This document shows, piece after piece, positions 16,259-57,228 of a stretch of DNA of 64,000 bases. The translations under genes were made by a program, and so were the position numbers. Under the pieces are notes generated by a model. The model was not told where the DNA came from, did not search any database, and worked only from the letters and a program-made list of their open reading frames with translations. This stretch comes from Corallococcus carmarthensis (GTDB taxonomy: Bacteria > Myxococcota > Myxococcia > Myxococcales > Myxococcaceae): NCBI RefSeq assembly GCF_003611695.1, contig NZ_RAWE01000012.1, positions 1-64,000 of the forward strand, written 5' to 3'. The number at the start of each line of letters is the position of its first letter. Position 1 is the stretch's first letter.

Positions 16259-16380
16259 CGCCGGCATCTCCGACATCAGCATCTGGCCGGAGGACGCCGC
16301 CGTGGCGTCGGCGTGAAGTCGGCGCGGATCCTCGCGGAGACGCCGACTTCAACCGCCTTCGTGGTGCCGGGAGTGGCTCA
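16259..16380 (+). repeat. Copied 3' end of eutBC (non-coding remnant)
   Basis: This stretch repeats the last 115 or so bases of eutBC (about 15790-15908): both contain cgccggcatctccgaca, ggccggaggatgccgccgtgg with one change, and gcgcggatcctcgcggagac. The copy carries a small insertion and no reading frame of its own. It sits immediately before the 3' end of lipoprotein paralogue 2, exactly as the original sits before paralogue 1. This shows that paralogues 1 and 2 arose by tandem duplication of a segment that began inside eutBC. Confidence 0.85.
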
Positions 16381-16635: not shown

Positions 16636-16754
16636 GCTTCCTCCATGAGGGGTTTGCCGCGCGAACATAAACCGATGCGTCTGTCTTTGGAATCTCCGTT
16701 GAGTGCGTGACCCAGCGCGCAATGCCGGGTCACGCCACCTCCGACGTCAGCGGT

Positions 16755-17012
16755 TCAGCACTCCAGGATGTACTCCGAGTAGACCGACCGGCCGCCCCAG
16801 TTGTAGAGCCCGCCGCAGTAGCAACCAAACTCACCGATCAGCTCGGTGTGCGCGGCGTTGTTGTAGTACCTGTGCAGGTTCGCGTTCGGCTCGTTGGAGC
16901 AGTCCGGCAGCGGAGCCTCCTGGGAGGCAAGGTCCGGCTCGCCCTCCTGCTCCATGGGGGCGCCACAGCCCACCGCCATCGCCAGCAGACCACCGAGAAT
17001 GAATGACCGCAT
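16755..17012 (-). CDS. Small Cys-rich lipoprotein, paralogue 3 of 3
   Basis: An 85-residue paralogue starting MRSFILGGLLAMAVGCGAP, with an acidic linker, LPDC, a YYNNAAH segment, FGCYCGG, a Trp-Gly pair and a final Cys. It is more diverged than copies 1 and 2, and no convincing copy of the eutBC tail precedes it, so it is likely the older member or its flank has decayed. The ATG at 17012 has GGAGG six bases upstream. Upstream DNA (17013-17124) is noticeably richer in A and T than the surroundings and probably carries its promoter. Confidence 0.83.
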   Translation of the reverse strand: MRSFILGGLLAMAVGCGAPMEQEGEPDLASQEAPLPDCSNEPNANLHRYYNNAAHTELIGEFGCYCGGLYNWGGRSVYSEYILEC

Positions 17013-17124
17013 GTGTCCTCCTTGAGGGGGACGCAAACCATACGCGGTCCACGACTGCGCTTGAAACAGTTATCGCGGATTTCAGTTTAACGGTGGATGA
17101 CGGGTTGCATTGTAAAACAGTGCT

Positions 17125-25651: not shown

Positions 25652-26464
25652 CTACCGGTGCATCGCCTCGAGCCGCGCCCGCACGGCGGCCACTCCGTCG
25701 CGCGGGAAGGCGGGCACATGGGACAGCTCGCGTTCGGCCAGCCGCAGCAGCGTGCGCGCCAGGGCCGGTGAATCGCCCTCCAGGGCTCGCGCCAGCTCAC
25801 CGCCGGTCGCCGGATACACGCGCTCCACGCGGCGCACCGGATCCAACCCATCCAACAGCGAAGCCGCGGGCGCGGGGACGTGGCGCGCGAGCAGCAGGCA
25901 GAACAGGCGCACCGCTTCGTAGAGCCGCGAGCGCCCACTGAGCCCCTCGCCGCGAGCGTGGCGCCCCACGCCCACCAGCACCTGCGTGAGCCACTGTCCG
26001 AACAGCCACGCGTCGTCCGGAGCCGTGCGCTGCAACTCCGAAGCGGTGTCTCGCGCGCGCTCGTCCATGCGCTCCGTCACGCCGCCCTTGTCCGCCAGCA
26101 CGCGGTAGCGGTTCACGCGCGCGAACGACAACTCCTCCAGGTCGAACACCGCGAACTCCAGCAGGTGCCCGTCCCGGTACACGACCTTGATGCCGTGGGC
26201 CGTCTCCCGGAACGCCAGCGCCACGTCCTCCGCGCGGGGCAGCCAGCCGCGGTCCTGTCTCAATGTTTCAGCGTGTCCGGGCCACGCGATGACGAAGAAA
26301 TCGTGGTCGCTGAAGTCATCCGGCGGGTAGTCGCGCGCGGCCATCGAGCCCAGCGCCACGAGCCCCCGGAAACGGCTGTCCGCGTCAGCCCTGCGCGTCA
26401 ATTCCGTGGTGAAGGCTTGATAGGCGGCGGTGTCCAAGGGCGTGCTCCTCTGGAAAGGCCACAT
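25652..26464 (-). CDS. Nucleotidyltransferase-fold protein
   Basis: A 270-residue protein of the Pol-beta-like nucleotidyltransferase superfamily. Near residue 35 it has GLVALGSMAARDYPPDDFSDHDFFV: the G-S followed by the D-x-D in SDHD is the metal-binding signature. The rest is helical with no named domain, similar in layout to aminoglycoside adenylyltransferases, but no resistance role can be claimed. The ATG at 26464 (MWPF) is preferred because GGAG lies seven bases upstream; an earlier ATG at 26503 has no ribosome site. It is convergent with the PLP-fold gene, 12 bases apart, and divergent from the lipase gene. Confidence 0.7.
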   Translation of the reverse strand: MWPFQRSTPLDTAAYQAFTTELTRRADADSRFRGLVALGSMAARDYPPDDFSDHDFFVIAWPGHAETLRQDRGWLPRAEDVALAFRETAHGIKVVYRDGHLLEFAVFDLEELSFARVNRYRVLADKGGVTERMDERARDTASELQRTAPDDAWLFGQWLTQVLVGVGRHARGEGLSGRSRLYEAVRLFCLLLARHVPAPAASLLDGLDPVRRVERVYPATGGELARALEGDSPALARTLLRLAERELSHVPAFPRDGVAAVRARLEAMHR

Positions 26465-27645
<1,181 letters not shown>

Positions 27646-27665
27646 TCCCGCTGGAGCGCCCCGCC

Positions 27666-28721
27666 ATGAAGAGCCGCGCCGTCATTCTCGTGGTCGCGCT
27701 GTGCGCCCTCCTGGGTGCCGGCGTCTTCTCGTGGTGGAAGGTCCGGGCGGAGGACGCGCCCGGACCCGCTGTCCCGCCGTCCGCCGTTCCCGTCGCGCAA
27801 GGCTCCGTGCCGCGCGCGACGTCCCCCGCCGTTCCCGGTGCCGCCGCGACGGGGAGCCCGGATCCGTCGTCCGGTTCGACGCTGCCTCCGCTGCCCGGGT
27901 CGCTCCAGGACACGGAGGAGGACGGCGCCGTGCTCGTGGACGCGTCCGGGCACCTGGTGCCGAACGCGGACCTGCGCCGGTTCTTCAGCTACTACCTGTC
28001 CGCCACGGGCGAGGAGTCCTCGGCGCTCATCCGCGAGCGCATCCTCACGGCCCTGCGGGCGAAGAAGCTGCCCGCCGCCGCCATGGATGAAGCGGTGCAG
28101 GTGCTGGACGATTACCTGTCCTATCTGGAAGCGGCCCGGGGCCTGGCGTCGAAGGGCTCCGCGTCCACGCTGGACACCGCCGAGCGCCTGGAGGCCCTGC
28201 GCAAGCTGCGCCGTGAGCACCTGGGTGGCGCCGCCGACGGCCTCTTCGGGCAGGAGGAGGCGGTGGACGCGGTCGCCGTGGAGCGGCTGAAGCTGATGAA
28301 GGACGCGTCGCTGACGAAGGAGGAGCGCGAGCAGCGCATCGCGGCGCTGGAAGAACGGCTCCCCCCGGACGTGCGCGCCAGCCGCGAGGAGGCTGTGCGC
28401 CCGTTGCGGCAGCAAGCCGTGGAGCAGGAGCTGCTGGCGGCGGGAGCGACGGCGGAGGACCTGCACCAGCACCGGTTGTCCACCGTGGGGCCGGAGGCCA
28501 CCGGGCGGCTGGAGGCGCTGGACGCGGAGCGCGCGCAGTGGAAGCAGCGGCTGGCGGACTTCCGCGCGAAGCGCGAGGCGCTGGGACGCAGCGAGCCGGA
28601 TCCGGCCCTGCGTCAGGCCGCGGTGCAGCGGCTCCTGTTCGACTCGTTCACCCCGGAGGAGCGCCTCCGGGTGGAGGCCGCGGACAGCATCGACGCGGCC
28701 TCCGGTTCCGGAGGCGGGTGA
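27666..28721 (+). CDS. lifO: Lipase-specific foldase (lipase chaperone)
   Basis: LifO is an inner-membrane-anchored steric chaperone that folds the cognate lipase in the periplasm before type II secretion. The 351-residue protein has an N-terminal membrane anchor (residues 5-22), a Pro/Ala-rich spacer to about residue 80 and an all-helical chaperone domain with the hallmark motif RRFFSYYLSATGEES near residues 107-121 (consensus RxxFDYxLSAxGE, here with F-S in place of F-D). The C-terminal third is rich in Arg, Glu and Ala helices that wrap the lipase. It lies 20 bases after the lipase gene and is probably cotranscribed with it. Confidence 0.9.
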   Translation: MKSRAVILVVALCALLGAGVFSWWKVRAEDAPGPAVPPSAVPVAQGSVPRATSPAVPGAAATGSPDPSSGSTLPPLPGSLQDTEEDGAVLVDASGHLVPNADLRRFFSYYLSATGEESSALIRERILTALRAKKLPAAAMDEAVQVLDDYLSYLEAARGLASKGSASTLDTAERLEALRKLRREHLGGAADGLFGQEEAVDAVAVERLKLMKDASLTKEEREQRIAALEERLPPDVRASREEAVRPLRQQAVEQELLAAGATAEDLHQHRLSTVGPEATGRLEALDAERAQWKQRLADFRAKREALGRSEPDPALRQAAVQRLLFDSFTPEERLRVEAADSIDAASGSGGG

Positions 28722-28728
28722 GTCCGCT

Positions 28729-29724
28729 TCAGGCGATCTTGAAGGGCTTCAGCTCGCTGACCTCTTCCAGCAGCAGCGGCTGCGCGTGGAGGTACGCGGT
28801 GGTGCGGCGCTTCTGGTCGATGTCGTCGTAGACGCGCTGGATCTGCTGCGGCGTGAGGCCCATCTCCGGGGAGACCTCCTCGGGCGTGATGCCGTGGTTC
28901 TTCGCCCAGAGGATGAGATCCAACTGCGAGTAGTGCACGGAGAAGTAGAAGTCCTCCTGTGACTGCTCCAGGCTGAAGGTGTCCGTGGTGGGCTCGCGGT
29001 TGAGGATGCCGTCGATGACGCCCAGGTGCCGCGCGAGCTTGTACGTCTGCGTCTTGTAGAGGCTGGCGATGGGCTTCACGTCCGCGGCGCCGTCGCCCAG
29101 CTTCACGAAGAAGCCCTGGTCATACTCCAGGCGGTTGGGCGTGCCGGACGCGGCGAAGTTCAGCCGGTCCGCGTGGAAGTACTCCATCATCTTGCGCACG
29201 CGCTGCTTGAAGTTGGTGGCGGCGACAATCTGCACGTAGGCCTGGGGCGTGAGGCGGAAGCGCTGCTCCTGCCCGTCCACCTGGACCACCACGTAGAAGA
29301 CGTTGAGGGCGTCCGTGTTGAGCCGGTCGCCGTGCATGACGATCTTCCACTTCATGTCCGGCTGGAACGCGGGGAACACGGAGCGCACGGCCGCGTCGCG
29401 CTGCGAATAGCACCCGGCGGCCTCCAGCACGGGCGCGATGTCGTGGAGCGTGTACTGGATGCCCAGCTTCTCGCAGAGCTCGCGGCCCAGCTTGGAGGAC
29501 AGGCCGCTGGAGTCGCGCTCCGGCAGCAGCAGTCCGAAGACGCGGTCCGGTCCCAGCGCCCGCACCGCCAGCGCGGCGACGCACGCGGAGTCGATGCCGC
29601 CGGAGACGGCGACCACCAGACCGCGCTTGCGCAGCTTCTTGAGGACGGCCTCCTTGAGCCCGTCGGACAGCGACGCGGCCTTGGCCTCCCAGTCCAGTTC
29701 CAGCACCTGCTTGGAGAACTTCAT
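28729..29724 (-). CDS. NAD-synthase-like adenylating amidase, divergent subfamily
   Basis: The 331-residue product carries the N-type ATP-pyrophosphatase loop VVAVSGGIDSACVAAL (about residues 37-52) and the NadE signatures ASGTPNRLEYDQGFF and KLGDGAADVKPIASLYKTQ. In ordinary NadE the next segment has a PPSADLWxxQTDE-type substrate loop; here it is EPTTDTFSLEQSQEDFYF, without that acidic pair. It has no N-terminal glutaminase domain, so it would use free ammonia or ammonia channelled from a partner. It is the last gene of a seven-gene minus-strand cluster and follows the AMP-ligase by two bases. It may be the cell's NAD synthase, or a homologue amidating another carboxylate; the context favours the second, which is inference. 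Confidence 0.8.
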   Translation of the reverse strand: MKFSKQVLELDWEAKAASLSDGLKEAVLKKLRKRGLVVAVSGGIDSACVAALAVRALGPDRVFGLLLPERDSSGLSSKLGRELCEKLGIQYTLHDIAPVLEAAGCYSQRDAAVRSVFPAFQPDMKWKIVMHGDRLNTDALNVFYVVVQVDGQEQRFRLTPQAYVQIVAATNFKQRVRKMMEYFHADRLNFAASGTPNRLEYDQGFFVKLGDGAADVKPIASLYKTQTYKLARHLGVIDGILNREPTTDTFSLEQSQEDFYFSVHYSQLDLILWAKNHGITPEEVSPEMGLTPQQIQRVYDDIDQKRRTTAYLHAQPLLLEEVSELKPFKIA

Positions 29725-29726
29725 CG

Positions 29727-31325
29727 TCACGGCGACCTCGATTCAGGGGAAGAAAGTGAAGACAGCACGCGCGTGCGCAGGTCCGCCTTGAGCACCTTGC
29801 CGGTGGGCCCGCGTGGGAGCGCTTCGATGAACAGCACGTGGCGCGGCACCTTGTGGGCCGGGAGCGCTTCGCGGCAGAAGCGGCGGAGGTCGTCCTCCTT
29901 CGCGGTGGCGCCGGGGTGGAGGACCACGGCGGCGCACGCGGCCTCGCCGCCCAGGTCGTCCGGCACGCCCACGACGGCGACCTCCAGCACGGCCGGGTGG
30001 CGCGCGAGGACGTGCTCTATCTCCGCGGGGCTCACCCGGTGACCGCCCACCTTGAGGATCTCCTTGGCGCGGCCGACGAGGAAGAAGAAGCCGTCCGCGT
30101 CGCGCCACGCGAGGTCGCCGGTCCACAGCCAGCCGTCGTGGAGGATGGCGGCCGTGTCGCCGGGGGCGTTGAGGTAGCCGGGGGTGACGTTCGCGCCCTT
30201 CGCCACGAGCTGGCCCACTTCACCATCGGGCAGGGGCGTGCCGTCGTCCGCGACCACGGCCAGCGTGACGCCGGGGATGCCCTGGCCAATGGAGCCCGCC
30301 TTGTCGGTGGCGCGCGAGGGCGGCAGGTAGGAGAGCCGCGCGGTGGCTTCCGTCTGGCCGTACATGACGAACAGCTCGGCGGGGTGGAAGGCCTCGCGCG
30401 TCCAGCGCACGGTGTCCGGGGACATGCCTCCGCCGGCCTGCGTGAGGTAGCGCAGCTTGAGGTTCGCGAGAGAGTCCGGCGCGGCCTGGCGGCGCAGCAG
30501 CTCGAAGGTGAGGGGCACGCCCGCGAAGCCGGTGCACGCCTCGGTGGCCATGGCCTCCAGCACGACCTGCGGATACATGAAGCGCGGATCCAGGAACACG
30601 GAGCCACCCGCGAGCAGGTGCGTCTGGAGCACGCTCTTCCCGTAGCAGTAGTGCAGGGGAAGGATGTGCATGGCGCGGTCGCGCGGCGTGAGGCCCAGGT
30701 ACTCCACGATGGAGCGCGTGTTCGCCGCGATGTTGGCGAACGTCTGCACGACGCCGCGGGGCGTGCCGGTGCTGCCGGACGTGTAGACGATGGACGCGGG
30801 CGCGTCCGGGGGCAGGGAGGGCAGGGCGGACAGTGGATCCGCGACGGCTTCCGGATCCACGGCGCCGTCTTCCTGGAGCCACGTACACGCCGAGGGCTTC
30901 AGTAATCCGAGCATGCGCTCCGGAGGACGGGAGCCGTGAACGACGAAGAAGTGGGTGAGCTGCGCGCGGCCCGTCCAGCGCCGCGCGTCCTGGCCGAAGA
31001 TGACCGCATGGCGTGCACCCGTCTGCGTGAGGATGCTGGCCAGTGAGTCGGCGCCCGTCTCGCGGTCCAGCTCCACGGCGCAAGCGCCCAGTGCCTGCAC
31101 CGCGAGCCCCGCCACGGCCGCCGCGCAGCCCAAGGGTAGGGCGATGAGGACCCGAGCACCGGGCTCCACGCCCGAAGCGCGCAGCTGACCCGCGAGCGCC
31201 AGCATCCGCGCATCAAGCTGGGCATAGGTGAGCCGCGCCCAGGGGGAGTCCACCGCCGGGGCCTCCGGCGTCGCCTGGGCATGGGCGCGAACCCATGAGG
31301 GCGCGGTGTCCGCAGTCGCGCTCAT
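29727..31325 (-). CDS. AMP-forming acyl/aryl ligase (ANL superfamily)
   Basis: A 532-residue adenylate-forming enzyme with the full motif set: SIVYTSGSTGTPRGV (A3), MYGQTEATARLSY (A5), LWTGDLAWRDADGFFFLVGR (A7-A8 hinge) and GPTGKVLKADL holding the catalytic Lys (A10). It has no fused carrier domain, so it probably loads the stand-alone ACP of the cluster or makes a CoA ester. Substrate specificity is not readable from sequence alone. The ATG at 31325 has GGGAGGAGG immediately upstream. It lies 79 bases after asnB and two bases before the NadE-like gene. Ligases of this kind also occur in exosortase-associated polysaccharide clusters beside AsnB-like enzymes. Confidence 0.9.
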   Translation of the reverse strand: MSATADTAPSWVRAHAQATPEAPAVDSPWARLTYAQLDARMLALAGQLRASGVEPGARVLIALPLGCAAAVAGLAVQALGACAVELDRETGADSLASILTQTGARHAVIFGQDARRWTGRAQLTHFFVVHGSRPPERMLGLLKPSACTWLQEDGAVDPEAVADPLSALPSLPPDAPASIVYTSGSTGTPRGVVQTFANIAANTRSIVEYLGLTPRDRAMHILPLHYCYGKSVLQTHLLAGGSVFLDPRFMYPQVVLEAMATEACTGFAGVPLTFELLRRQAAPDSLANLKLRYLTQAGGGMSPDTVRWTREAFHPAELFVMYGQTEATARLSYLPPSRATDKAGSIGQGIPGVTLAVVADDGTPLPDGEVGQLVAKGANVTPGYLNAPGDTAAILHDGWLWTGDLAWRDADGFFFLVGRAKEILKVGGHRVSPAEIEHVLARHPAVLEVAVVGVPDDLGGEAACAAVVLHPGATAKEDDLRRFCREALPAHKVPRHVLFIEALPRGPTGKVLKADLRTRVLSSLSSPESRSP

Positions 31326-31404
31326 GCCTCCTCCCGCTGCACATGTGTCCACGGCGCCGAGGACAGCGCGAGCGCAATGGCCACCCCGGTGCCTGTAGGT
31401 GCGA

Positions 31405-33375
31405 TCACGCGGCCTCCAACTGCACCGCGTCCACGTCCGCTTGAGGCACCGGGCGCGGCTTCAGGAAGTGGTGCGCCAGCAACTGCGTGGACGCCACGGC
31501 GAACAGGGCCATGGTGTCCGCCTCGCTCTCCGCCGAGTTCGGCGCCCGCAGCTTCGCGACCAGCCGCTCCACCTTGCGCGCATCGAAGACGCCCGTCGCC
31601 GCCACTGCCTCGGGGGCCAGCAGCTCGCGCGCCCACGCGGGCGCATCCGGGCCCACCAGCGCTCCCGCGATGGGGGCGCGGTACGGGAACTTGCTGCGCT
31701 CCAGGATGGATGCAGGCACACGGCCCTTCGCGAAGCGCTTGAGCAGGTGCTTCTCGTCCAGGCCTCGCAGGCGCAGCCGCTCTGGCACCCTCGCGGCGAA
31801 CTCCATCACGCTCGTGTCCAAGAACGGGAAGCGTCCCTCCACGGCGTTGCCCAGCAGCATGCGGTCGCCTTGCGCGGACAACAGGTATCCGGACAGCAGC
31901 GTGCGCGCCTCCAGGTACTGTGCCCGCGCCAGTGGCCTCCACTTCGCCACCGCGTCCGGCACCGTCGCGAGCACCGACGCCACCGGATCCTCGTCCGCCA
32001 CCTTCGCGGCGAACTCCGGCGCGAGGAAGCGCAGGATGCGGCCGCTGTTGCCCCACCGCACCAGGTGCGAGAACCCCAGCGCGTCTGGCGTCTCCAGTCC
32101 CGTGCCGAAGAACTCGCGCAGCAGCTCCACGTTCTGCTGGCTCACCGACAGCGTCGGATACAGCCGGCGCAGCAGCAGCGGCCGGTACTTCGACGCCGGC
32201 TGGCGCGCCCAGAACTGGCGCACCTGCGTCTCCTTGAAGAGGTCGTAGCCGAGGAACATCTCGTCCGACCCTTCACCCGTCAGCACCACCTTGATGCCCT
32301 GGTCGCGCACCCACCCGGAGAGCCGCAGGAACGGCGCGGGCGCGGAGCGCATCATCGCCTGCTCCGCGTGGAAGATGACGCCCGGCACCAGCGCGCCAAT
32401 GTCCCCGTCGCGCATCTCCACCACGCGGTGCTCGGTGCGCAACTGCTCCGCGACCGCCGCCTGGTGCGTGCGCTCGTCGAACCGCGCGTGCGCGAAGCCC
32501 ACGGAGAACGTCCGCAGCGTGCCGCCCAGCTGCTCCTGCGCCAGCGCGCACAGGAGGCTGGAGTCCAACCCGCCCGACAGGTACGCCGCCACCGGCACGT
32601 CCGCGCGCAGCCGCAGCCGCACCGCCCGGTCCAGCACCGCGCCCAGCTCCTCCAGCAGCCGGGGCGCATCCGCCGCGTCCGGCGTCACTCCGAAGTCCAG
32701 GTCCCAATAGCGCTGGAGCGTCAGCGTTCCATCGCGCCACTTCGCCACGTGCGCGGGCGGCAGCAGCGACACGCCCTCGAAGGACGTGCGCGGTGCCACC
32801 GGTGCCCAGAGCTGGAACGTCTGCTTGAGGCCCCGCGCGTCCAACGCGGGCGTCACGAGTCCCCCGGCGAACAGCGCCTTCGCCTCCGACGCGAAGGCCA
32901 GGTGGCCTCCCGGCAGCTGCGCGTAGAACAGCGGGCAGATGCCCACGCGGTCGCGCGACATCCACAGCGTGCGGTCGCGCGGGTCCCACAGCGCGAAGGC
33001 CCACTGGCCCTCGAAGCGGCGCACGCAGTCGATGCCCCACGTCAGGAACGCCGCGAGGATGACCTCCGTGTCGGAGCGCGTGCGGAAGGCATACGCCCCC
33101 GACAGCTGCTCGCGCAGCTCCACGTGGTTGAAGATCTCTCCGTTGAAGACCACGGTGAGGCCGGTGGCCTCGTCGCGCATCGGCTGGTGGCCGGAGGCCA
33201 GGTCCACGATGGACAGCCGCGCGTGCCCCAACGCGGCGCCGTCCAGGAGCAGGGCCCGCTGCGCGTCCGGCCCCCGGTGCTTGATGCTGGCGGTCATGCG
33301 GCGCAGGCGGTCGGCATGAATCGCCGGAGCCGCGGCGTCACCCGCCGGGAAGGTGAACCCCGCGATGCCGCACAT
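31405..33375 (-). CDS. Asparagine-synthase-like (AsnB) glutamine amidotransferase
   Basis: A 656-residue two-domain enzyme. The N-terminal class II glutaminase begins MCGIAGFTF, with the nucleophile Cys2 intact, plus IKHRGPDAQ and VFNGEIFNH. The synthetase half has the ATP-PPi loop LSGGLDSSLLCAL near residue 255. Together these transfer glutamine ammonia to an adenylated carboxylate. Chains of this length in polysaccharide and natural-product clusters amidate sugars or carriers rather than aspartate. It begins seven bases after the ACP gene. With the AMP-ligase and the NadE-like protein, the cluster has three enzymes that activate carboxylates with ATP, which suggests an amidated or acylated product. 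Confidence 0.92.
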   Translation of the reverse strand: MCGIAGFTFPAGDAAAPAIHADRLRRMTASIKHRGPDAQRALLLDGAALGHARLSIVDLASGHQPMRDEATGLTVVFNGEIFNHVELREQLSGAYAFRTRSDTEVILAAFLTWGIDCVRRFEGQWAFALWDPRDRTLWMSRDRVGICPLFYAQLPGGHLAFASEAKALFAGGLVTPALDARGLKQTFQLWAPVAPRTSFEGVSLLPPAHVAKWRDGTLTLQRYWDLDFGVTPDAADAPRLLEELGAVLDRAVRLRLRADVPVAAYLSGGLDSSLLCALAQEQLGGTLRTFSVGFAHARFDERTHQAAVAEQLRTEHRVVEMRDGDIGALVPGVIFHAEQAMMRSAPAPFLRLSGWVRDQGIKVVLTGEGSDEMFLGYDLFKETQVRQFWARQPASKYRPLLLRRLYPTLSVSQQNVELLREFFGTGLETPDALGFSHLVRWGNSGRILRFLAPEFAAKVADEDPVASVLATVPDAVAKWRPLARAQYLEARTLLSGYLLSAQGDRMLLGNAVEGRFPFLDTSVMEFAARVPERLRLRGLDEKHLLKRFAKGRVPASILERSKFPYRAPIAGALVGPDAPAWARELLAPEAVAATGVFDARKVERLVAKLRAPNSAESEADTMALFAVASTQLLAHHFLKPRPVPQADVDAVQLEAA

Positions 33376-33382
33376 GGGCGTC

Positions 33383-33631
33383 TCAGCTCGCCTTCGCCAG
33401 CGACTGCTTGCGGTCCACGAAGGCCACCACGCGCGACAGCGAGTCCAGGTTCTCCGGCACCAGCTCCTTGTCGTCGAGCTTGATGTGGAACTCCGTCTCG
33501 ATGAAGGCCACCAGCTCCATCATGCCCGTGGAGTCGATGAGGCCCTTGCGCAGGAACGAGTCGTCGTCCGCGAAGTCGTCCACGAAGAAGGTGTCGACGA
33601 TGAAGGTGCGAAGCGTGTCACGCGTGCTCAT
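33383..33631 (-). CDS. Acyl carrier protein
   Basis: An 82-residue stand-alone carrier protein. The phosphopantetheine attachment Ser lies in GLIDSTGMMELVAFIE, the usual D-S motif at the start of helix II, near residue 34. It is acidic in the first helix region and has the length of a discrete ACP. It lies seven bases before asnB and is preceded by an AGGA ribosome site. As a dedicated carrier beside an AMP-ligase, it probably holds the activated acyl group. It is not the fatty-acid AcpP: no fab genes are close. Confidence 0.93.
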   Translation of the reverse strand: MSTRDTLRTFIVDTFFVDDFADDDSFLRKGLIDSTGMMELVAFIETEFHIKLDDKELVPENLDSLSRVVAFVDRKQSLAKAS

Positions 33632-33677
33632 GGGGTGAGTCCTGTCTTTCCAAACGGGGTGTGGAAGGGCGATGCGG

Positions 33678-33716
33678 AAAAGAACGCGCCCGGCGCGTTT
33701 TGCTGAGCGCCGGGCG
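33678..33716 (-). terminator. Intrinsic terminator between acyltransferase and ACP genes
   Basis: On the minus strand a perfect 10-bp GC stem (33716-33707 with 33696-33687, CGCCCGGCGC) encloses a 10-base loop and is followed by CGTTCTTTTCC. It lies 18 bases downstream of the first acyltransferase stop. It divides the cluster into an SGNH/acyltransferase unit and an ACP-AsnB-ligase-NadE unit, or acts as a partial attenuator between them. Confidence 0.75.
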
Positions 33717-33733
33717 AAAAGGGGGACGGGCCG

Positions 33734-34330
33734 TCAGGTGCCCGTGGCCTCGCGGGCCACCAGGTCCAGGCTCATGCTGCGCGCCGGGTTGCCCATGGCG
33801 AGCGAGTCCGGGGGCACGTTCTGCGAGACGATGCTGCCGGCGGACACCACCGACCGCGCGCCAATCCGCACGCCCGGCAGCAGGATGGCGCCGTGGGCCA
33901 CCCAGACGTCGTCCTCGATGATGATGGGGGCGATGCGCTGGCCATCCCGGTCGCTCACCCGCACGAACGACGCGAACATGCACCGGGCGCCGATCTGCAC
34001 CGACTCCCAGGCCTCCACGGACGCGCCGTAGTTGAACTGGGTCTCCGAACCCACCAGCAGCCGGGCGTGCTCGTAGCAGACCACCGACGTGGGCAGCATG
34101 CCGCCCAGGAACGTGAGCTTGTCGCCCAGCTCCGCGTGGCCGTCGTTGCGCGCGGTCACCGGGCCATACGCCGCCACGTCCCGGCCCATGCGGAAGTCGC
34201 GGAACAGCCAGCGCGCCCGAGCGACGGCCACCATGCGTTCGGCACGGGGGAACACCTCCGTGCGCACCATCTGGAGGCCCGTGCGCGCCAGCTGGAGCGC
34301 CTCCTCCCTGGAGGGGATGGCGGGCTTCAT
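33734..34330 (-). CDS. Left-handed beta-helix acyltransferase (hexapeptide family), copy 1
   Basis: A 198-residue transferase of the LbH/hexapeptide-repeat superfamily, which acetylates or acylates sugars. The C-terminal half contains the imperfect hexapeptide ladder and the family's typical end: IIIEDDVWVAHGAILLPGVRIGARSVVSAGSIV and then AMGNPARSM (given here as location about residues 130-185). A His in WVAHGA fits the usual catalytic position. The ATG at 34330 overlaps the stop of the next acyltransferase by four bases, so the two are translated together. The terminator follows 18 bases after the stop. Confidence 0.88.
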   Translation of the reverse strand: MKPAIPSREEALQLARTGLQMVRTEVFPRAERMVAVARARWLFRDFRMGRDVAAYGPVTARNDGHAELGDKLTFLGGMLPTSVVCYEHARLLVGSETQFNYGASVEAWESVQIGARCMFASFVRVSDRDGQRIAPIIIEDDVWVAHGAILLPGVRIGARSVVSAGSIVSQNVPPDSLAMGNPARSMSLDLVAREATGT

Positions 34331-34869
34331 CGCGCCCCCTCGCGCCGTAGCACGCGGGCCGGAGAACCGCCCACCGTCACGCCCGGTGGGATGCGCCGGG
34401 AGATGACCGTGCCGGAGGCCACGCTCGCGCCCTTCTGCAGGTGCGTGCCCGGCAACAGGATGGAGCGGCTGCCCACCGTGACACCTTCCTCCACCATCAG
34501 CGGCACCGACTGCGGCCGCTCGTGCCGGTTGCCGCGGACCGGGTGGTACATGTTGTCCATCAGCTTGCACCACATGCCCAGGCGGCTTCGCGCGCCCAGC
34601 GTCACGCATGACTGCGCTTCGATGGAGCTGCCTCCCTCGATGGTCACGTCGTCTTGAATCACGATGCGTCCCCCCCGCTGCGCATGCAGTTCGATGGGCG
34701 CCATCCGCGCGTCGAACACCACGCGGTCACCGATCTGGACTTCACCCTCGCCGTGAATCCAGACACGCCCCCAGACGGTGGGGGTGGCGCCCACGGACTC
34801 GCAGCGGCGCAGCTTCAAACGTGCGACAGCCGGCCCCAGGCCGAGCATCATCATGAACCGAGCGCGCAT
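34327..34869 (-). CDS. Left-handed beta-helix acyltransferase, copy 2
   Basis: A 180-residue hexapeptide-repeat protein. Repeats run through the whole chain (GRVWIHGEGEVQIGDRVVF, IVIQDDVTIEGGSSIEAQ, TVGSRSILLPGTHLQKG) and it ends GGSPARVLR, the usual C-terminal cap of sugar O-acetyltransferases. A His in DNMYHPV may be the catalytic base. Its stop overlaps the start of acyltransferase copy 1, and it begins three bases after the SGNH-like gene. Two coupled acyltransferases suggest successive or heteromeric modification of one glycan. Confidence 0.87.
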   Translation of the reverse strand: MRARFMMMLGLGPAVARLKLRRCESVGATPTVWGRVWIHGEGEVQIGDRVVFDARMAPIELHAQRGGRIVIQDDVTIEGGSSIEAQSCVTLGARSRLGMWCKLMDNMYHPVRGNRHERPQSVPLMVEEGVTVGSRSILLPGTHLQKGASVASGTVISRRIPPGVTVGGSPARVLRREGAR

Positions 34870-34872
34870 GGC

Positions 34873-35736
34873 TCAGGGCCCGGCCTTCGCGGAGGCAGGC
34901 GCTTCGGGTAGCGCCGCCAGGAAGGCGATGAGCGCGGAGGCCACGCGCGCCTGCCCCTGCGCGTTGAGGTGGCCACCGTCGTCCGACCAGGCAGGCACCA
35001 GCGCCGGGTACGCACGGCCGTTCACCTCGTACGTCTCGCGGGTGCCATCCGCCCGCGACGACTCCAGCGCCGCCAGGTCGAACAGCGGTTCCTTGCCGCC
35101 GTAGGTCTGCCGCATGAGCGCGTTGAACGCCTCGCGCGACACGTTCTCCCCCACGCCATAGACAGGACGCCCGCGCAGCTCGTTGAACCACGCCTTCGCC
35201 CCGCGCTGCACCGTCGTCAGCGGCGCGGTGACGTGCACGAAGGTGACGCCCGGGTGGCGCGACTTCAGCCCCGCGAGCGTGGTGCGGTACTTCTCGAAGA
35301 GCGCCTTCGCGTCCGTGCTGGAGGTGAAGTCGATGTAGCAGAACTTCATCAGCGCCACGTCCACCTGCTTCGCGACGCCGCCGTCCAGCAGCCGCTCGAA
35401 GTGCGCCAGCTTCGTCTCCGGCTGCTCGTTCTGTCCCACGAACGCGTGCGCCAGGGTGCCCGGCGGAATCGTCGCGTTCGCGTCCTTCACCTCCACGATG
35501 GCGGGCGCCGCCGGGTTCGGCGAAGGCAGCAGGCCCCGCACGCCGTCCAGGATGTTGCCGCCCACCGACTGGTGGCCGAAGAACACCCGGCGGTGCGTCA
35601 GCCGCTCCAGTCCCGCGAGCGTCGTGTCGGGCTTCACCTGGGCCGTGGCCGCCGCGCTCTGGGGCAGGGCCATCAGCAGTGCACCTGGAAGGAGCAGGGC
35701 ACCTAATCGCGCGGGAAAGCCACGAATGACTTGCAT
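34873..35736 (-). CDS. Exported SGNH-hydrolase-like protein
   Basis: A 287-residue exported protein. The signal peptide has a hydrophobic core GALLLPGALLMALPQSAA (residues 12-29). The mature part has FFGHQSVGGNILDGV near residue 52 and SDDGGHLNAQGQARVA near the C-terminus, the second matching the D-x-x-H block V of SGNH/GDSL esterases. The first block departs from GDSxT, so the nucleophile (perhaps Ser in HQSVG) is uncertain. It is the first gene of the cluster, and deacetylation or transacylation of an exported glycan is plausible. The ATG at 35736 has AAGG upstream; 134 bases separate it from the MscS gene on the same strand. Confidence 0.72.
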   Translation of the reverse strand: MQVIRGFPARLGALLLPGALLMALPQSAAATAQVKPDTTLAGLERLTHRRVFFGHQSVGGNILDGVRGLLPSPNPAAPAIVEVKDANATIPPGTLAHAFVGQNEQPETKLAHFERLLDGGVAKQVDVALMKFCYIDFTSSTDAKALFEKYRTTLAGLKSRHPGVTFVHVTAPLTTVQRGAKAWFNELRGRPVYGVGENVSREAFNALMRQTYGGKEPLFDLAALESSRADGTRETYEVNGRAYPALVPAWSDDGGHLNAQGQARVASALIAFLAALPEAPASAKAGP

Positions 35737-35870
35737 ATGTGAACCTTTAGACCCTTCCGCCGCCGAGCGTCAAAGGCCCTGGCGTCACGGTTGGATGCAT
35801 GCCTCCCAGGCCGCCACGCATCACCCGTCAGAGGGTCGTGATTGCCCCGGAGTGACGTTGGGGAAACCCC

Positions 35871-37361
35871 CTATTCGTGCGTGAGGCCGAAGAGGGCGCG
35901 CAGCCTTCCGAGGATGCGGCCTGCCTCCGGCGAATGGTCCGGCCCGCCACCGGAGGCCTGGGCCACGGCGCGCAGCTGGGTGCGGCGCTGGGCGAGCAGC
36001 GCGGACAGCTGCCGGGCGAGGCCCGGGTAGTCGGAGAACAGCCGCGCGAAGGTGGGCCGGTCCAGCTCCAGCAGCACGGAGTCCTCGAGCGCGACCACGG
36101 TGGCGGCACGGCGCTCTCCGGTGAGCAGCGACATCTCCCCGATGTAGTGGCCCGGCCCCAGGCGCGTGATTTCGGACTGGAGCGTGCCGGCGCGCACGCT
36201 GACCTCGCCGGAGGCCACGACGTAGAAGGTGCCGCCCTCGTCGCCCTCCTGGATGATGCGCTCGTTGCGGCCGAAGCGGCGCACCACCACCTCGCAGCGC
36301 AGGCGCTCCAGCTCCTCCGGGCCCAGCGGCGCGAAGAGGTCCACCTGGCGCAGCAGCTCCCGCACCGTGTCGTCGGCCAGCTCGCGGCGGCGGTGTCCCG
36401 CCTCACGGCGCAGGGTCACCGTGCGCTGGGCGTGGGGCAGCTCCAGGCCCTCGCGGCGCAGCCGGTACCACAGCCGCGTGTGCAGCTCCTCCCGCACGGT
36501 GTCCGACAGCGCGAAGTCGTTGAGGAAGACGCGGATCATGTACTGCGCGTTGGAGTCGGTGAAGGCCACCGTGCGCGCCAGGGGCGGCGGCTGCACCAGG
36601 ACCTGGGGAATCTCCCGCGCCACGTCCAGCAGCGCCTGCTTCACCTGGTTGGGTGGCGCGTCCAGCGACACGCCCACCTGCATCTCGATGCCCACGGGCT
36701 CGCGGTGCTGGGTGAAGTTCTTCACGTGCTCCTTGCCCACCATGCTGTTGGGCAGGGTGATGACCTCGCGCCGGAAGTTGGCGATGCGGATGGAGCGCCA
36801 CCCGATGTGCACCACCCGTCCGGTGTGCTCGCCAATGCGGATGAAGTCACCCACCTCGAACGGCCGGTCCAGCTGCAACGACAGACCCGCGAAGAGGTTG
36901 CCCAGCGTCTCCTGGAGCGCGAGGCCGATGACCACCGTCAGCACCGCGGACGTGGCCACGAGCCCCGCCAGGTCCAGGTTGAGCTGGCTCTGGAGGATGG
37001 GGAGGGTGGCGAGCGCGTACAGCGTGAAGTCGATGACGTCGCGGAGAATCTTGGGCGTCGTCACCGGCGAGCGCATCCGCACCAGCTTCAGCGCGAACGC
37101 CACCGCGGCCCGGATGACGCCGTAGGCGAACGTGAGCATCCAGCCCACGTGCACGAACTTGTACAGGCCTGGCGGCGTGGTGGCTTCCGGCAGCAGGCGC
37201 GACGCCAGCCGCAGCACCAGGAAGGCGACCAGCATCCGCACCGCGCCGCGCAAATCGTCGCGCAGGTCCGGGTCGCGGGTGGTGCGCTGGATGCCCAGCA
37301 GGAGCACCGTCAGGACGGAGCCCGCCAGCAGGGGGAGGTGGCCTTCGAGGAAGTTCAGCAC
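35871..37361 (-). CDS. MscS-type channel with C-terminal cyclic-nucleotide-binding domain
   Basis: A 496-residue membrane protein. Four hydrophobic segments occupy residues 8-155. The MscS pore and beta domain follow, with the signature GLALQETLGNLFAGLSLQLDRPF and GDFIRIGEHTGRVVHIGWR (given as location about 145-190). A cNMP-binding domain covers about 350-460, with the phosphate-binding cassette region LGPGHYIGEMSLLTGERRAATV. A mechanosensitive channel gated or tuned by a nucleotide is the likely role. The start is a GTG at 37361, just after the divergent holB leader; no strong ribosome site is seen. Confidence 0.9.
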   Translation of the reverse strand: MLNFLEGHLPLLAGSVLTVLLLGIQRTTRDPDLRDDLRGAVRMLVAFLVLRLASRLLPEATTPPGLYKFVHVGWMLTFAYGVIRAAVAFALKLVRMRSPVTTPKILRDVIDFTLYALATLPILQSQLNLDLAGLVATSAVLTVVIGLALQETLGNLFAGLSLQLDRPFEVGDFIRIGEHTGRVVHIGWRSIRIANFRREVITLPNSMVGKEHVKNFTQHREPVGIEMQVGVSLDAPPNQVKQALLDVAREIPQVLVQPPPLARTVAFTDSNAQYMIRVFLNDFALSDTVREELHTRLWYRLRREGLELPHAQRTVTLRREAGHRRRELADDTVRELLRQVDLFAPLGPEELERLRCEVVVRRFGRNERIIQEGDEGGTFYVVASGEVSVRAGTLQSEITRLGPGHYIGEMSLLTGERRAATVVALEDSVLLELDRPTFARLFSDYPGLARQLSALLAQRRTQLRAVAQASGGGPDHSPEAGRILGRLRALFGLTHE

Positions 37362-37444
37362 GCCCGGCGAATCAGACCGGTGGCGCGCGCACGGGTCAAG
37401 GTGGCGGTTGACGGGTGCCCTCCGAGCGGAGATACACGCCCCCC

Positions 37445-38479
37445 ATGACGCTTGCCTCGGTGCAGGGACAGCCCCGCGCGATGGATGCGCTCCAATCCGC
37501 CCTGCGGTCCGGCTCGGTGCATCACGCCTACCTGTTCGCCGGGCCAGAGGGGGTGGGCAAGGAGCTGGCCGCGGTGGGACTGGCCCAGGCCCTCACGTGC
37601 CCGGAGGCCCCGGAGGTGGGCTGCGGCAAGTGCGCCAGCTGCCTGCGCCTCGCCAAGGGGCTGCACCCGGACGTCACCTGGGTGATGCCGGACGACGAGC
37701 GCGTGTCGCGAGGACTCGCGGGCCGTTCGGACTTCACCGGCACCCCCAGCCGCGAGCTGCGCGTGGAGCAGATCCGGCAGCTCCAGGAGCGGCTGGCGCT
37801 GCGCGGCCTGGAGTCCAGGCGCAAGGTGGCCATCCTGGTCAGCGCGGAGCAGATGAACGTCCAGGCGCAGAACGCCTTCTTGAAGACGCTGGAGGAGCCG
37901 CCCGCGGAGACCACCCTCATCCTGGTGGCGAGCGCCATGGACCGGCTGCTGCCCACCATCCGCAGCCGGTGCAGCAAGGTGTACTTCGGCCCGCTGCCGG
38001 TGGACCTGGTCGCACGGCACGTGCAGCAGGAGCGCAAGCTGGACGCGGACACCGCCGCCCTGGCCGCGGTGATGTCCGGGGGCAGCCTGGGCCGCGCGCT
38101 CGCGCTGGACGTGGACGCGCTGAAGGAGCGCAAGGACGTCCTCACCGCTTTTGAATCCCTGAGCGGCGACGACATCCCCGCGCTCCTGCGCTTCGCGGAG
38201 GCCCATGGCGGCTCGCGCGAGGACGCGGACACGGCGCTGGAGCTGCTCATCTTGTGGACACGGGACGTGGCGCTCGCGAAGGCCGGGGCGGAAGAGGCGC
38301 TGGCGAACCGGGACCTGAAGGTGCTGGCGCAGGAGGCGGCGAAGCGCACGTCGGAGGCCGCGCTGCACCGGCGGCATTCGCTGCTGGAGTCGGCGCGGAC
38401 GGCCATCGGCTCGCGCAACGGCGCGCCCCGGTTGCAGCTGGAGCGGCTGCTCATCGAACTGTGCGTGGAGGGCCGATGA
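37445..38479 (+). CDS. holB: DNA polymerase III delta-prime subunit
   Basis: A 344-residue clamp-loader AAA+ protein. The P-loop is GPEGVGKELAA (about residues 29-39), a zinc module has GCGKCASCLRL near residue 60, and the sensor-1 and arginine-finger region is AQNAFLKTLEEPP with IRSRCSKV. The N-terminus GQPRAMDALQSALRSGSVHHAYLF is typical. The start is the ATG at 37445; a GTG at 37415 adds only ten unconserved residues. Its stop overlaps the start of holA by four bases (ATGA), so the two clamp-loader subunits are translated together. Confidence 0.94.
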   Translation: MTLASVQGQPRAMDALQSALRSGSVHHAYLFAGPEGVGKELAAVGLAQALTCPEAPEVGCGKCASCLRLAKGLHPDVTWVMPDDERVSRGLAGRSDFTGTPSRELRVEQIRQLQERLALRGLESRRKVAILVSAEQMNVQAQNAFLKTLEEPPAETTLILVASAMDRLLPTIRSRCSKVYFGPLPVDLVARHVQQERKLDADTAALAAVMSGGSLGRALALDVDALKERKDVLTAFESLSGDDIPALLRFAEAHGGSREDADTALELLILWTRDVALAKAGAEEALANRDLKVLAQEAAKRTSEAALHRRHSLLESARTAIGSRNGAPRLQLERLLIELCVEGR

Positions 38480-39792
38480 GCGCGGACATGGACGAGGTGC
38501 TGGCGGAGGTGAAGGGCGGCAAGGTGTGGCCGCTGTACCTCCTGTGGGGCGAGGAGTTCCTGGTCCGCAAGGGCGCCGACGAGCTGGTGAAGACGCTGGT
38601 GCCGGACGCGGCCATGGGGCTCAACCTCGCGGTGCTGGACGCGGCCTCCCCGCGCGAGGTGGCGCAGGAGCTGGCCACGATGCCGCTGTTCCCCGGGCGC
38701 AAGGTGGTGCTGGTGCGCGACCCGGAGTTCCTCGCGCCCAAGAAGGGCAAGGGCGACGCGCTGGCCAAGGCGCGCGACGCGTGGAAGGCGGGCAAGCGCA
38801 AGGAGGGCGCCCGGCGGCTGCTGGCGCTGGCGGGCCGCGCGGGCTGGGGCGTGGATCAGCTGGATCCCCGCGTGCCCGGCGCTCCCTCCGTGGAGCAGTG
38901 GAAGGACGAGCTGAACGTGGACCTGGCGGAGGCCGACCTGGCCTTCCTCCAGGAGGCGGCGGCCTTCTGCCGCGACGAGCGCATCAGCGCCCCGGAAGGG
39001 GACGCGTCCGCGCTGCTGGAGCTGCTCCAGAAGGGCGTGCCGCCGGGGCACGCGCTGGTGCTGGCGGCCACGGACGTGGACTCGCGCAGCCCGCTGCTCA
39101 AGTTCGCGCAGGACAAGGGCCGCCTCTTCGAGCGCAAGGTGGCCGCGCGCCACAAGGACCTGGACCTCAGCGAGATCGCGAAGGAGTTCCTGGTCCCCTT
39201 CAAGAAGAAGCTGGGGCCGGGCGCGCTGGAGGGGCTGAAGGAGCGCATCGGCGGCAACATCCGGCTGCTCCAGTCGGAGCTGGAGAAGCTGGCCGTCTAT
39301 TCGGAAGGGCCCACCATCGAGGCCCAGCACGTGGCGCTGCTGGTGCACCACGCGCGCGAGGAGGAGTTCTTCGAATTGACGGAGGCGCTCCAGAAGCGCG
39401 AGCTGCGTGACGCGCTCTCCTATGCCGAGGACGCGATGGGGCAGGGCACGCACGCGCTGCAGTTGCTGGGCGCGGTGGCGTCCATCGTCCGCTCGCTCTT
39501 GGAGAACCACGCCTGGCTGGAGAAGTACGCCGGAGGCCAGCCGCCGCGCACCGGCCGCGACGTGGAGTCGCGCATCCTCCCGAAGCTGGAGGCGGAGCTG
39601 AAGGCCTCCAAGCGCAAGACGCCCAACGCGTGGGCGCTCGCGTTCGGCATGCAGGCCGCCGCCCGCTACGAGCGCCGCGAGCTGCTCAACGCCCTGGTGG
39701 CGTGCGCGGACGCGGACCTGGCCCTGAAGTCCTCGGCCAGCGGGAAGCTCGTCATCGAACGGCTGTTGTGGACGGTGTGCACCCGCGCCTGA
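38476..39792 (+). CDS. holA: DNA polymerase III delta subunit
   Basis: A 438-residue protein with the HolA layout: VWPLYLLWGEEFLVRKGADEL at the N-terminus (about 14-34), a Rossmann-like domain, and a C-terminal collar region with GGNIRLLQSELEKLAVY and FFELTEALQKRELRDAL. The delta subunit opens the sliding clamp for loading. It is longer than the usual 340 residues because of a charged insertion (about residues 85-155, Lys/Arg/Ala-rich). Translation is coupled to holB. Confidence 0.92.
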   Translation: MSADMDEVLAEVKGGKVWPLYLLWGEEFLVRKGADELVKTLVPDAAMGLNLAVLDAASPREVAQELATMPLFPGRKVVLVRDPEFLAPKKGKGDALAKARDAWKAGKRKEGARRLLALAGRAGWGVDQLDPRVPGAPSVEQWKDELNVDLAEADLAFLQEAAAFCRDERISAPEGDASALLELLQKGVPPGHALVLAATDVDSRSPLLKFAQDKGRLFERKVAARHKDLDLSEIAKEFLVPFKKKLGPGALEGLKERIGGNIRLLQSELEKLAVYSEGPTIEAQHVALLVHHAREEEFFELTEALQKRELRDALSYAEDAMGQGTHALQLLGAVASIVRSLLENHAWLEKYAGGQPPRTGRDVESRILPKLEAELKASKRKTPNAWALAFGMQAAARYERRELLNALVACADADLALKSSASGKLVIERLLWTVCTRA

Positions 39793-39817
39793 AGGGGCCC
39801 GGGCTGAAGGAGCCGCC

Positions 39818-40267
39818 ATGGCGGACAAGCGACGCTTCGACCTCTTCGCGGACCTGCTCGTCACGCGCTTTCCCCAGGCCCAACGCGTCTATGACGTCGC
39901 CGGCGGCATGGGGAAGCTGAACGAGTCCCTCACCCAGCGCGGGCGCACCGTCACCACCTTCGACCTGCGCCACAAGCACCTGCCCGTGCGGTACGCGCAG
40001 CGCATCTTCACGCTGGAAGAGCCGTGCGAAGCGGAGCTCGTCGTGGGCATGCACCCGGACGGCGCCACGCGGATCATCATCGAGTACGCCGCACGCCACG
40101 GGCTGGGCTTCGCCGTCGTTCCTTGCTGCTCCGACAATGGGATGCCCTACAAACCGTGGATGCGGCACCTGGCCGACGTGGCCCGCGACGCTGGCTTCCC
40201 CACCGTGGAAGAGGCCGAGCTCTCCATGGATGGGCGTGCCCGGGTCCTGCTCGGCGTGTGGCGTTGA
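39818..40267 (+). CDS. Small SAM-fold conserved protein
   Basis: A 149-residue protein. The N-terminus has RVYDVAGGMGKLNESLTQRG (about residues 23-42), a glycine-rich loop like motif I of class I methyltransferases, followed by TFDLRHKHL as in motif II. A conserved PCCSDNGMPYKPWM lies near residue 110, unusual for methyltransferases. It is 25 bases after holA on the same strand with a good AAGGAG site, so it is probably cotranscribed with the clamp-loader genes. Substrate unknown. Confidence 0.8.
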   Translation: MADKRRFDLFADLLVTRFPQAQRVYDVAGGMGKLNESLTQRGRTVTTFDLRHKHLPVRYAQRIFTLEEPCEAELVVGMHPDGATRIIIEYAARHGLGFAVVPCCSDNGMPYKPWMRHLADVARDAGFPTVEEAELSMDGRARVLLGVWR

Positions 40268-57148: not shown

Positions 57149-57228
57149 CGGAAGGTGAAGGGGTGGGCAGGCTAGCACCCACGGGTCCGATTGAAGCGGG
57201 GGAGTGAACGGGTAAGGTCGGCCGCGTG

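What the first reader, a model, noticed from the sequence alone, without database searches (positions are those of the whole stretch)
28729..35736. Biosynthetic cluster combining AMP-ligase, ACP, AsnB and a NadE-like enzyme with two acyltransferases
Seven adjacent minus-strand genes encode an SGNH-like exported protein, two coupled LbH acyltransferases, a discrete ACP, an AsnB-type amidotransferase, an AMP-ligase and a NadE-like protein. Three different carboxylate-activating ATP enzymes plus a carrier protein suggest an amidated or acylated product, perhaps a decorated exopolysaccharide or a carrier-bound amide. AsnB and AMP-ligase partners are known in exosortase-associated clusters, but no exosortase is here. 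The product cannot be deduced from sequence.
Basis: partly seen in the sequence, partly recalled or inferred. Interest (0 to 1): 0.75.

Follow-up and report, generated by a model that had tools for sequence, protein, structure and literature searches.

The report
Cross-phylum amide-tailoring operon with NadE paralog
A seven-gene operon in a Corallococcus-like bacterium carries a four-gene core (a NAD-synthetase-like protein, an AMP-ligase, an acyl carrier protein and an asparagine-synthetase-like protein) that recurs as a set in loci from nine bacterial phyla and is likely to build an amidated, acylated sugar for the cell surface, so the "NAD synthase" label on one of its genes is probably wrong.

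Summary
The seven minus-strand genes are real and tightly packed (28729-35736). The unexpected part is a four-gene core, NadE-like + AMP-ligase + ACP + AsnB, that stays together far outside Myxococcota: of 48 non-duplicate NadE-like loci with at least 7.5 kb on both sides, 45 have a ligase, 43 AsnB, 38 an ACP and 37 all three; full sets occur in loci titled to nine phyla. The linked AsnBs form one supported clade (59 of 60), apart from 17 of 18 other AsnBs of NadE-like-bearing genomes. The NadE-like protein is an extra paralog: 31 of 31 relatives and 20 of 20 further genomes have a separate NadE. Its model keeps the NadE fold, but it has an insertion and an altered conserved loop. Exopolysaccharide genes lie near it in 8 of 20 genomes, near the ordinary NadE in 0 of 20. 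Most likely it makes an amidated, acylated sugar for a surface polysaccharide. The product, and any polysaccharide link in Corallococcus, are inferred. It does not meet the exosortase-system ligase or amidotransferase models and the genome shows no exosortase. Ten full-text searches listed no paper on the module.

The parts
34873..35736 (-). Exported SGNH-fold protein (287 aa), predicted acyl esterase or O-acyltransferase; invariant H55, S57 and D253, G255, H256
   Evidence: No Pfam/NCBIfam match; AlphaFold pLDDT 87.3; top Foldseek hit PatB peptidoglycan O-acetyltransferase 7tjb, E 4.3e-7, 14% identity; invariant columns in 14 homologs
34327..34869 (-). LbH1, hexapeptide acyltransferase (180 aa), keeps a DNxxHP His
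   Evidence: PF00132/PF14602; His seen in the family rows
33734..34330 (-). LbH2, hexapeptide acyltransferase-like (198 aa), 4-base overlap with LbH1, DRDG where LbH1 has the His motif
   Evidence: PF00132; translation; relatives
33383..33631 (-). Discrete acyl carrier protein (82 aa) with GLIDSTG serine site
   Evidence: PF00550 exactly at its cut-off, 20.8 bits; best NCBIfam match AmcB 43.2 bits against a cut-off of 80; motif
31405..33375 (-). AsnB-type amidotransferase (656 aa), Cys2 and SGGLDS present; member of the NadE-linked AsnB clade
   Evidence: TIGR01536 453.4 bits, TIGR03108 403.8 (cut-off 816.9); tree
29727..31352 (-). AMP-forming acyl ligase (541 aa), A3 YTSGSTGT and C-terminal GKV present
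   Evidence: PF00501 + PF13193; TIGR03098 311.7 (cut-off 592.35); motifs
28729..29730 (-). NadE-like N-type ATP pyrophosphatase (333 aa), NF002048/PRK00876 subfamily; predicted amide synthetase

Best explanation
The operon carries a four-gene core (NadE-like, AMP-ligase, ACP, AsnB) that recurs as a set in loci from nine phyla and is likely to build an amidated, acylated sugar that would be added to a cell-surface polysaccharide. Proposed order of events, all steps inferred: the AMP-ligase adenylates a carboxylic acid and loads it on the ACP; the LbH pair passes the acyl group to an amino or hydroxyl group of a nucleotide-bound sugar; AsnB turns a uronic acid carboxylate of that sugar into an amide, as WbpS does; the NadE-like enzyme, which would adenylate a carboxylate and let ammonia displace AMP, makes a second amide on the sugar or on the acyl group; the SGNH protein trims or moves acyl groups on the exported polymer. 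Shown here: the genes, their linkage across phyla, the separate AsnB clade, the paralog status and altered loop of the NadE-like protein, and the enrichment of exopolysaccharide genes nearby.
For: Linkage: 37 of 48 full-flank, non-duplicate loci have a ligase, AsnB and ACP match within 9 kb of the NadE-like gene; 43 of 48 have ligase and AsnB. Full sets occur in 59 of 91 non-duplicate loci. Unit inheritance: 59 of 60 linked AsnBs form one clade (SH-aLRT 100, stem 0.82) with rows of nine labelled phyla, while 17 of 18 unlinked AsnBs from NadE-like-bearing genomes fall outside; NadE-like and AsnB distances correlate (r 0.69, 0 of 2000 permutations as high, 59 loci; shared species history adds to this). 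Not the only NAD synthetase: a separate NadE in 31 of 31 relatives with the gene and 20 of 20 genomes of other loci; 28 of 59 relatives show no full-length copy (some assemblies incomplete). Changed pocket: an insertion of about 50 residues and PTTDT where canonical rows have PSAEL, in 92 NadE-like against 19 canonical rows, with SGGxDS kept; the first and last T of TDT differ also from the five solved NadE or NMN synthetases aligned, which keep A and L there. Polysaccharide context: neighbours like XrtA chain-length, kinase, deacetylase, export and ATPase genes and an EPS sugar transferase; at least one of 11 marker families near the NadE-like gene in 8 of 20 genomes, two or more in 6, and near the ordinary NadE in 0 of 20. 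Amide chemistry: a PrmC-like methyltransferase lies in 11 of 89 loci, NPPY in 9 of 11; 8 of 9 genomes checked also have a stronger, canonical PrmC match. Precedent: deletion of WbpS, an AsnB-type enzyme, abolishes the uronamide of a surface linking sugar (PMC7468200, passages read).
Against: No substrate was identified. No glycosyltransferase is among the 40 window proteins scanned by Pfam, so the polysaccharide link in Corallococcus is by analogy only. Only 27 of 66 loci with ligase and AsnB show any EPS marker family and 19 show two or more. Some NadE-like genes stand without the module (L076, L084, L093 of 48). The ligase and ACP thresholds are lax (60 and 28 bits), so some of those matches may be other paralogs; no ligase tree was made. 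A genome with two NAD synthetases is known (PMC7196632, passages), so a second NadE does not by itself exclude NAD synthesis. The 19 canonical rows are of one NadE type, and parts of the NadE-like signature (the GDGA..D run, the D of PTTDT) are seen in solved NadEs. The module AsnB is the only AsnB-type gene found in the own genome at E 1e-40, so free asparagine synthesis is not excluded. The ligase substrate seems to vary between lineages. Uronamide is one of several possible amides.
Confidence: 0.42

Rival explanations
1. The core makes a soluble amidated small molecule on the carrier protein (an osmolyte or secondary metabolite), and polysaccharide genes lie near it only in some lineages. 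The ligase loads the ACP, AsnB and the NadE-like enzyme amidate, and the LbH proteins acetylate and release.
For: No glycosyltransferase is among the 40 window proteins scanned. AsnB also resembles the N-acetylglutaminylglutamine amidotransferase model (337.4 bits, cut-off 570.1) and the ACP resembles the cispentacin ACP AmcB (43.2, cut-off 80). 39 of 66 module loci show no EPS marker.
Against: EPS markers near 8 of 20 NadE-like genes against 0 of 20 canonical NadE genes; an exported SGNH-fold protein in the operon and an SGNH relative in 19 of 91 loci point outward.
Confidence: 0.27
2. The module makes a carrier-bound aminoacyl or amide group that is put on an exopolysaccharide or linking sugar without any uronamide: AsnB and the NadE-like enzyme both act on the acyl group.
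For: 24 of 64 ligases with a readable A3 motif (72 looked at) have an FD pair at the A4 position, as amino-acid adenylating domains do (motif meaning recalled). FemAB-type genes occur in some of the XrtA-like loci, and VimA presumably transfers Ser or Gly to a sugar (PMC7468200, passages).
Against: The window's own ligase has HYCYG at that position, without the Asp, and no FemAB gene is in the operon.
Confidence: 0.2
3. The NadE-like gene is a second, working NAD synthetase and AsnB a plain asparagine synthetase; the operon is a nitrogen-assimilation island with unrelated neighbours.
For: NF002048 is named NAD(+) synthase; the modelled fold is NadE; a genome with two NAD synthetases is known (PMC7196632); the module AsnB is the only AsnB-type gene found in the own genome.
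Against: Ordinary NadE loci of the same 20 genomes show no ligase or AsnB relative nearby (0 of 20); conserved loop and insertion changes; the linked AsnBs are a clade apart from other AsnBs.
Confidence: 0.08

Closest known systems
NAD synthetase family (NadE), with NMN synthetase of Francisella (3fiu) as nearest fold
   Different: Insertion of about 50 residues, PTTDT in place of P-S/T-A-x-L, extra paralog beside another NadE, linked to ligase/ACP/AsnB
XrtA/PEP-CTERM exopolysaccharide system ligase and amidotransferase (TIGR03098, TIGR03108)
   Same: Same enzyme classes; in some other phyla the module sits in XrtA-like EPS clusters
   Different: The 6 AsnBs and 6 ligases tested (window included) all score below both cut-offs; no exosortase in the own genome
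Wbp/Vim linking-sugar pathway with WbpS (AsnB-type)
   Same: AsnB-type enzyme next to sugar-tailoring genes; WbpS makes a uronamide (PMC7468200, passages read)
   Different: No wbp sugar-nucleotide genes in the operon; adds ligase, ACP and a NadE-like protein; our AsnB falls below the TIGR03108 cut-off, the family to which that paper assigns WbpS
Dlt D-alanylation system (composition recalled)
   Same: AMP-ligase, discrete carrier protein and an exported second-stage protein
   Different: DltC model 16.2 bits against a cut-off of 68; no MBOAT gene among the seven; has AsnB and NadE-like
PatB peptidoglycan O-acetyltransferase and SGNH esterases
   Same: SGNH fold (7tjb top hit, E 4.3e-7)
   Different: 14% identity, no Pfam family, different neighbourhood; activity untested

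Membership tests
NCBIfam NF002048 / PRK00876 (NadE-like subfamily) | Score above curated cut-off of 313 bits | tested here: met
   465.5 bits
Working NAD synthetase (NadE) | NadE fold and ATP-pyrophosphatase loop SGGxDS | tested here: met
   Model and fold comparison; alignment
Working NAD synthetase (NadE) | Conserved loop motif P-S/T-A-x-L of canonical NadE | tested here: not met
   PTTDT in NadE-like rows; A->T249 and L->T251 against 19 canonical rows and against five solved structures. 27 positions in all are conserved in both sets but differ; the canonical set is one NadE type, and some of the 27 are shared with other solved NadEs
Working NAD synthetase (NadE) | Sole NAD synthetase of the cell | tested here: not met
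   Separate NadE in the own genome, 31 of 31 relatives, 20 of 20 genomes of other loci. Two working copies can coexist in a genome (PMC7196632), so this alone does not exclude NAD synthesis
Working NAD synthetase (NadE) | Converts deamido-NAD to NAD in vitro | not testable with these tools
   Needs an enzyme assay
XrtA/PEP-CTERM amidotransferase TIGR03108 | Score above 816.9 bits | tested here: not met
   403.8 bits; five other module AsnBs 376-448
XrtA/PEP-CTERM ligase TIGR03098 | Score above 592.35 bits | tested here: not met
   311.7 bits; five other module ligases 318-510
XrtA/PEP-CTERM system | Exosortase in the genome | tested here: not met
   PF09721: no match in G000
WbpS-like uronamide-forming AsnB | Glutaminase Cys and AsnB synthetase domain | tested here: met
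   MCG start and SGGLDS
WbpS-like uronamide-forming AsnB | Amidates a sugar uronic acid | not testable with these tools
   Needs mutant glycan analysis
Dlt system | Carrier protein of the DltC family | tested here: not met
   NF003464 16.2 bits, cut-off 68
SGNH hydrolase/acyltransferase | SGNH fold with Ser and Asp-x-x-His | tested here: met
   Foldseek on the model; S57, D253 and H256 invariant in 14 rows

The most novel reading that the evidence does not exclude
A branch of the NAD synthetase family has left cofactor synthesis and become an amide synthetase for cell-surface sugars or their acyl groups, and with its own AsnB clade, an AMP-ligase and an ACP forms an undescribed four-protein amide-tailoring module used across nine or more phyla; the many genes that NF002048 names NAD(+) synthase would then be misnamed.
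Probability: 0.4. Interest if true: 0.8.

Novelty: new variant of a known kind. Interest (0 to 1): 0.62.

Why it matters
It groups four separately annotated genes into one widespread, apparently transferable module, gives evidence that a curated NAD(+) synthase family holds an accessory paralog rather than the cell's main NAD synthetase, and makes the amide chemistry of XrtA-like and myxobacterial surface polysaccharides directly testable by a few gene deletions and one enzyme assay.

Tried and rejected
Exosortase-system membership: rejected by both model cut-offs and by the lack of PF09721. Dlt-type D-alanylation: rejected on the carrier model and the lack of an MBOAT gene among the seven. 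NadE-like gene as the genome's only NAD synthetase: rejected. A gene of about 800-860 aa upstream in Pyxidicoccus and Citreicoccus (L044, L068, L069) looked like a part, but its N-terminus reads as an FtsX/MacB-type permease (by eye), and in Corallococcus the MscS gene stands there. A gap between NadE-like and AsnB in L046 was read in three frames of one strand for a ligase; none was seen. Rfam: no match in 26000-40000. Promoter and terminator scan: nothing above shuffles. Profile search of the SGNH family in PDB sequences: nothing significant. A glycosyltransferase was looked for in the window: none among 40 proteins scanned; one search picked about 51 ORFs. Literature: ten full-text searches listed no paper on the module, judged from titles and the start of abstracts; most subscription papers are not held. 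Papers opened, none read whole: PMC3376133 (abstract and passages), and by passages found by term PMC6946656, PMC9850573, PMC7468200, PMC7196632; PMC1569441 gave no passage for six terms on ligase, amidotransferase, ACP or NAD.

Limits of the counts. Nine near-duplicate loci were dropped before and eleven before the clustering; other close relatives remain. In the AsnB tree two linked AsnBs of odd length (L059, L088) and four weak or partial matches (L202-L205) were left out; the tree is the quick method, with two long rows among the unlinked ones. EPS marker families were built from these same loci (hits of a locus to its own proteins were ignored) and include FemAB-type and ATPase families; seven of the 20 control stretches are shorter than 19 kb, and seven of the 20 NadE-like loci have no module. 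Of the neighbour families, one representative each was scanned: the tyrosine kinase and the sugar transferase pass a cut-off, the chain-length, deacetylase, export, ATPase, outer-membrane and glycosyltransferase ones fall below theirs. VIA-align looks only at Foldseek's own candidates. Phylum names come from record titles, mostly MAGs, where misbinning is possible.
Full report
The observation. The window lies in a 10.8 Mb genome and has 70.7% G+C; its nearest named NadE-like match is Corallococcus exercitus (99%). Seven genes run on the minus strand from 35736 to 28729 in the order SGNH-fold protein, LbH1, LbH2, ACP, AsnB, AMP-ligase, NadE-like. LbH2 most likely starts at 34330, not at the longer open frame, and then overlaps LbH1 by four bases, as the ligase and NadE-like genes overlap. 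Downstream, on the other strand, are a lipase and its chaperone; upstream is an MscS-type channel with a cyclic-nucleotide domain.

Conservation. A full-length NadE-like gene is found in 31 of 59 genomes searched among relatives, 15 of 16 in the genus, and 75 of 193 genomes of the phylum pass the NF002048 cut-off. Larger stretches and 80 named loci were compared with the window's proteins. Of 48 non-duplicate loci with at least 7.5 kb on both sides, a ligase is within 9 kb in 45, AsnB in 43, ACP in 38, all three in 37, and none of them in 3 (L076, L084, L093); LbH and SGNH genes are optional (LbH2 22, LbH1 16, SGNH 19 of 91 loci). The ligase and ACP thresholds were lax (60 and 28 bits). Full sets are in 59 of 91 loci, with titles from nine phyla: Myxococcota, Pseudomonadota, Planctomycetota (L141), Acidobacteriota (L125), Actinomycetota (L085), Verrucomicrobiota (L091), Nitrospirota (L110), Ignavibacteriota (L106) and Armatimonadota (L134). 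Gene order and strand vary, so the link looks functional rather than a frozen stretch. A contig titled Nevskia (Gammaproteobacteria, MAG) has LbH1-LbH2-ACP-AsnB-ligase-NadE in the window's order with 78% identity in NadE-like: transfer of the cassette, or misbinning.

A unit of descent. In a tree of 78 AsnBs, 59 of 60 NadE-linked ones form one clade (SH-aLRT 100, stem 0.82) with rows labelled Myxococcota, Pseudomonadota, Planctomycetota, Acidobacteriota, Actinomycetota, Verrucomicrobiota, Nitrospirota, Ignavibacteriota and Thermodesulfobacteriota. Of 18 AsnBs not linked to a NadE-like gene, all from genomes that carry one, 17 fall outside and one (L176, about 14 kb from a module) inside; one linked AsnB (L142) falls outside (quick method, two long rows). 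NadE-like and AsnB distances correlate over 59 loci (r 0.69; 0 of 2000 permutations as high; shared species history adds to this).

Context. Representative neighbours in other phyla match an XrtA-associated tyrosine kinase and an exopolysaccharide sugar transferase above cut-off, and resemble XrtA chain-length, deacetylase, export, ATPase, outer-membrane and glycosyltransferase models below cut-off. In a paired control, EPS marker families occur near the NadE-like gene in 8 of 20 genomes (two or more families in 6) and near the ordinary NadE in 0 of 20; ligase and AsnB relatives also occur near the ordinary NadE in 0 of 20. Over all 66 loci with ligase and AsnB, 27 have at least one and 19 at least two marker families. 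Yet the window's proteins are not the exosortase-system members, nor are five AsnBs and five ligases of other loci, and the own genome lacks PF09721.

Chemistry. The ligase has its adenylation and C-terminal Lys motifs; in 24 of 64 ligases with a readable motif an FD pair stands where amino-acid activating domains have their Asp (meaning recalled), whereas the window has HYCYG, so the loaded acid may differ between lineages. AsnB keeps Cys2 and SGGLDS. A PrmC/HemK-like methyltransferase occurs in 11 of 89 loci, next to the ligase or NadE-like gene in 10 of them, with NPPY in 9 of 11; 8 of 9 genomes checked also have a stronger PrmC match. That family methylates amide nitrogen (recalled for PrmC), which fits an amide product. 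The SGNH protein folds, in the model, like PatB and SGNH esterases. WbpS, an AsnB-type enzyme, gives a uronamide in a surface linking sugar, and the same paper notes VimA-like and AsnB genes in exosortase loci (PMC7468200, passages). From this I commit to an amidated, acylated sugar for a surface polysaccharide, at 0.42; a soluble product and an aminoacyl product are the main rivals.

Limits. No product, substrate or phenotype is known. In Corallococcus itself no glycosyltransferase is among the 40 window proteins scanned. The locus set leans towards close relatives because the scan kept the best 80.

Noticed in passing
window 26716-28721: Lipase (Abhydrolase_1/Palm_thioest match) followed by a proteobacterial lipase chaperone gene; the pair sits beside the NadE-like gene in the same-genus loci but is not seen in the stretches of Citreicoccus (L044) or Pyxidicoccus (L068, L069).
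   Followed up: partly
window 33734-34330: LbH2 has DRDG where LbH1 has a His motif; relatives in L044, L046, L053, L068, L070 and L071 also lack the His there, so LbH2 may be a non-catalytic partner.
   Followed up: partly
L076, L077, L078, L090, L112: NadE-like genes without the module, next to a gene that reads as an Rrf2-type regulator and, in L076, L077 and L112 (also L079), a phosphotransacetylase-like gene (names by eye); a separate NadE is present in the genomes of L076, L077, L079, L090 and L112.
   Followed up: no
L092, L107, L117, L127, L108, L109: Extra PrmC/HemK-like methyltransferase beside the ligase or NadE-like gene; also in L056, L115, L126, L128, and in L133 beside the ACP.
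   Followed up: partly
L070:5003-10984: Six-gene cassette of the window's order in a contig titled Nevskia (Gammaproteobacteria); transfer or misbinning.
   Followed up: no
window 31405-33375: This is the only AsnB-type gene found in the own genome at E 1e-40 with TIGR01536.
   Followed up: no
window 16378-17036: Two adjacent small minus-strand ORFs with alike N-terminal lipoprotein-type signals (RTFLIGGLLA and RSFILGGLLAMAVGCG).
   Followed up: no
window 35871-37361: MscS-type channel fused to a cyclic-nucleotide-binding domain, upstream on the same strand, 134 bases from the operon.
   Followed up: no
window 57226-60111: Large protein with a golvesin C-terminal domain and an N-acetylmuramoyl-L-alanine amidase domain.
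   Followed up: no
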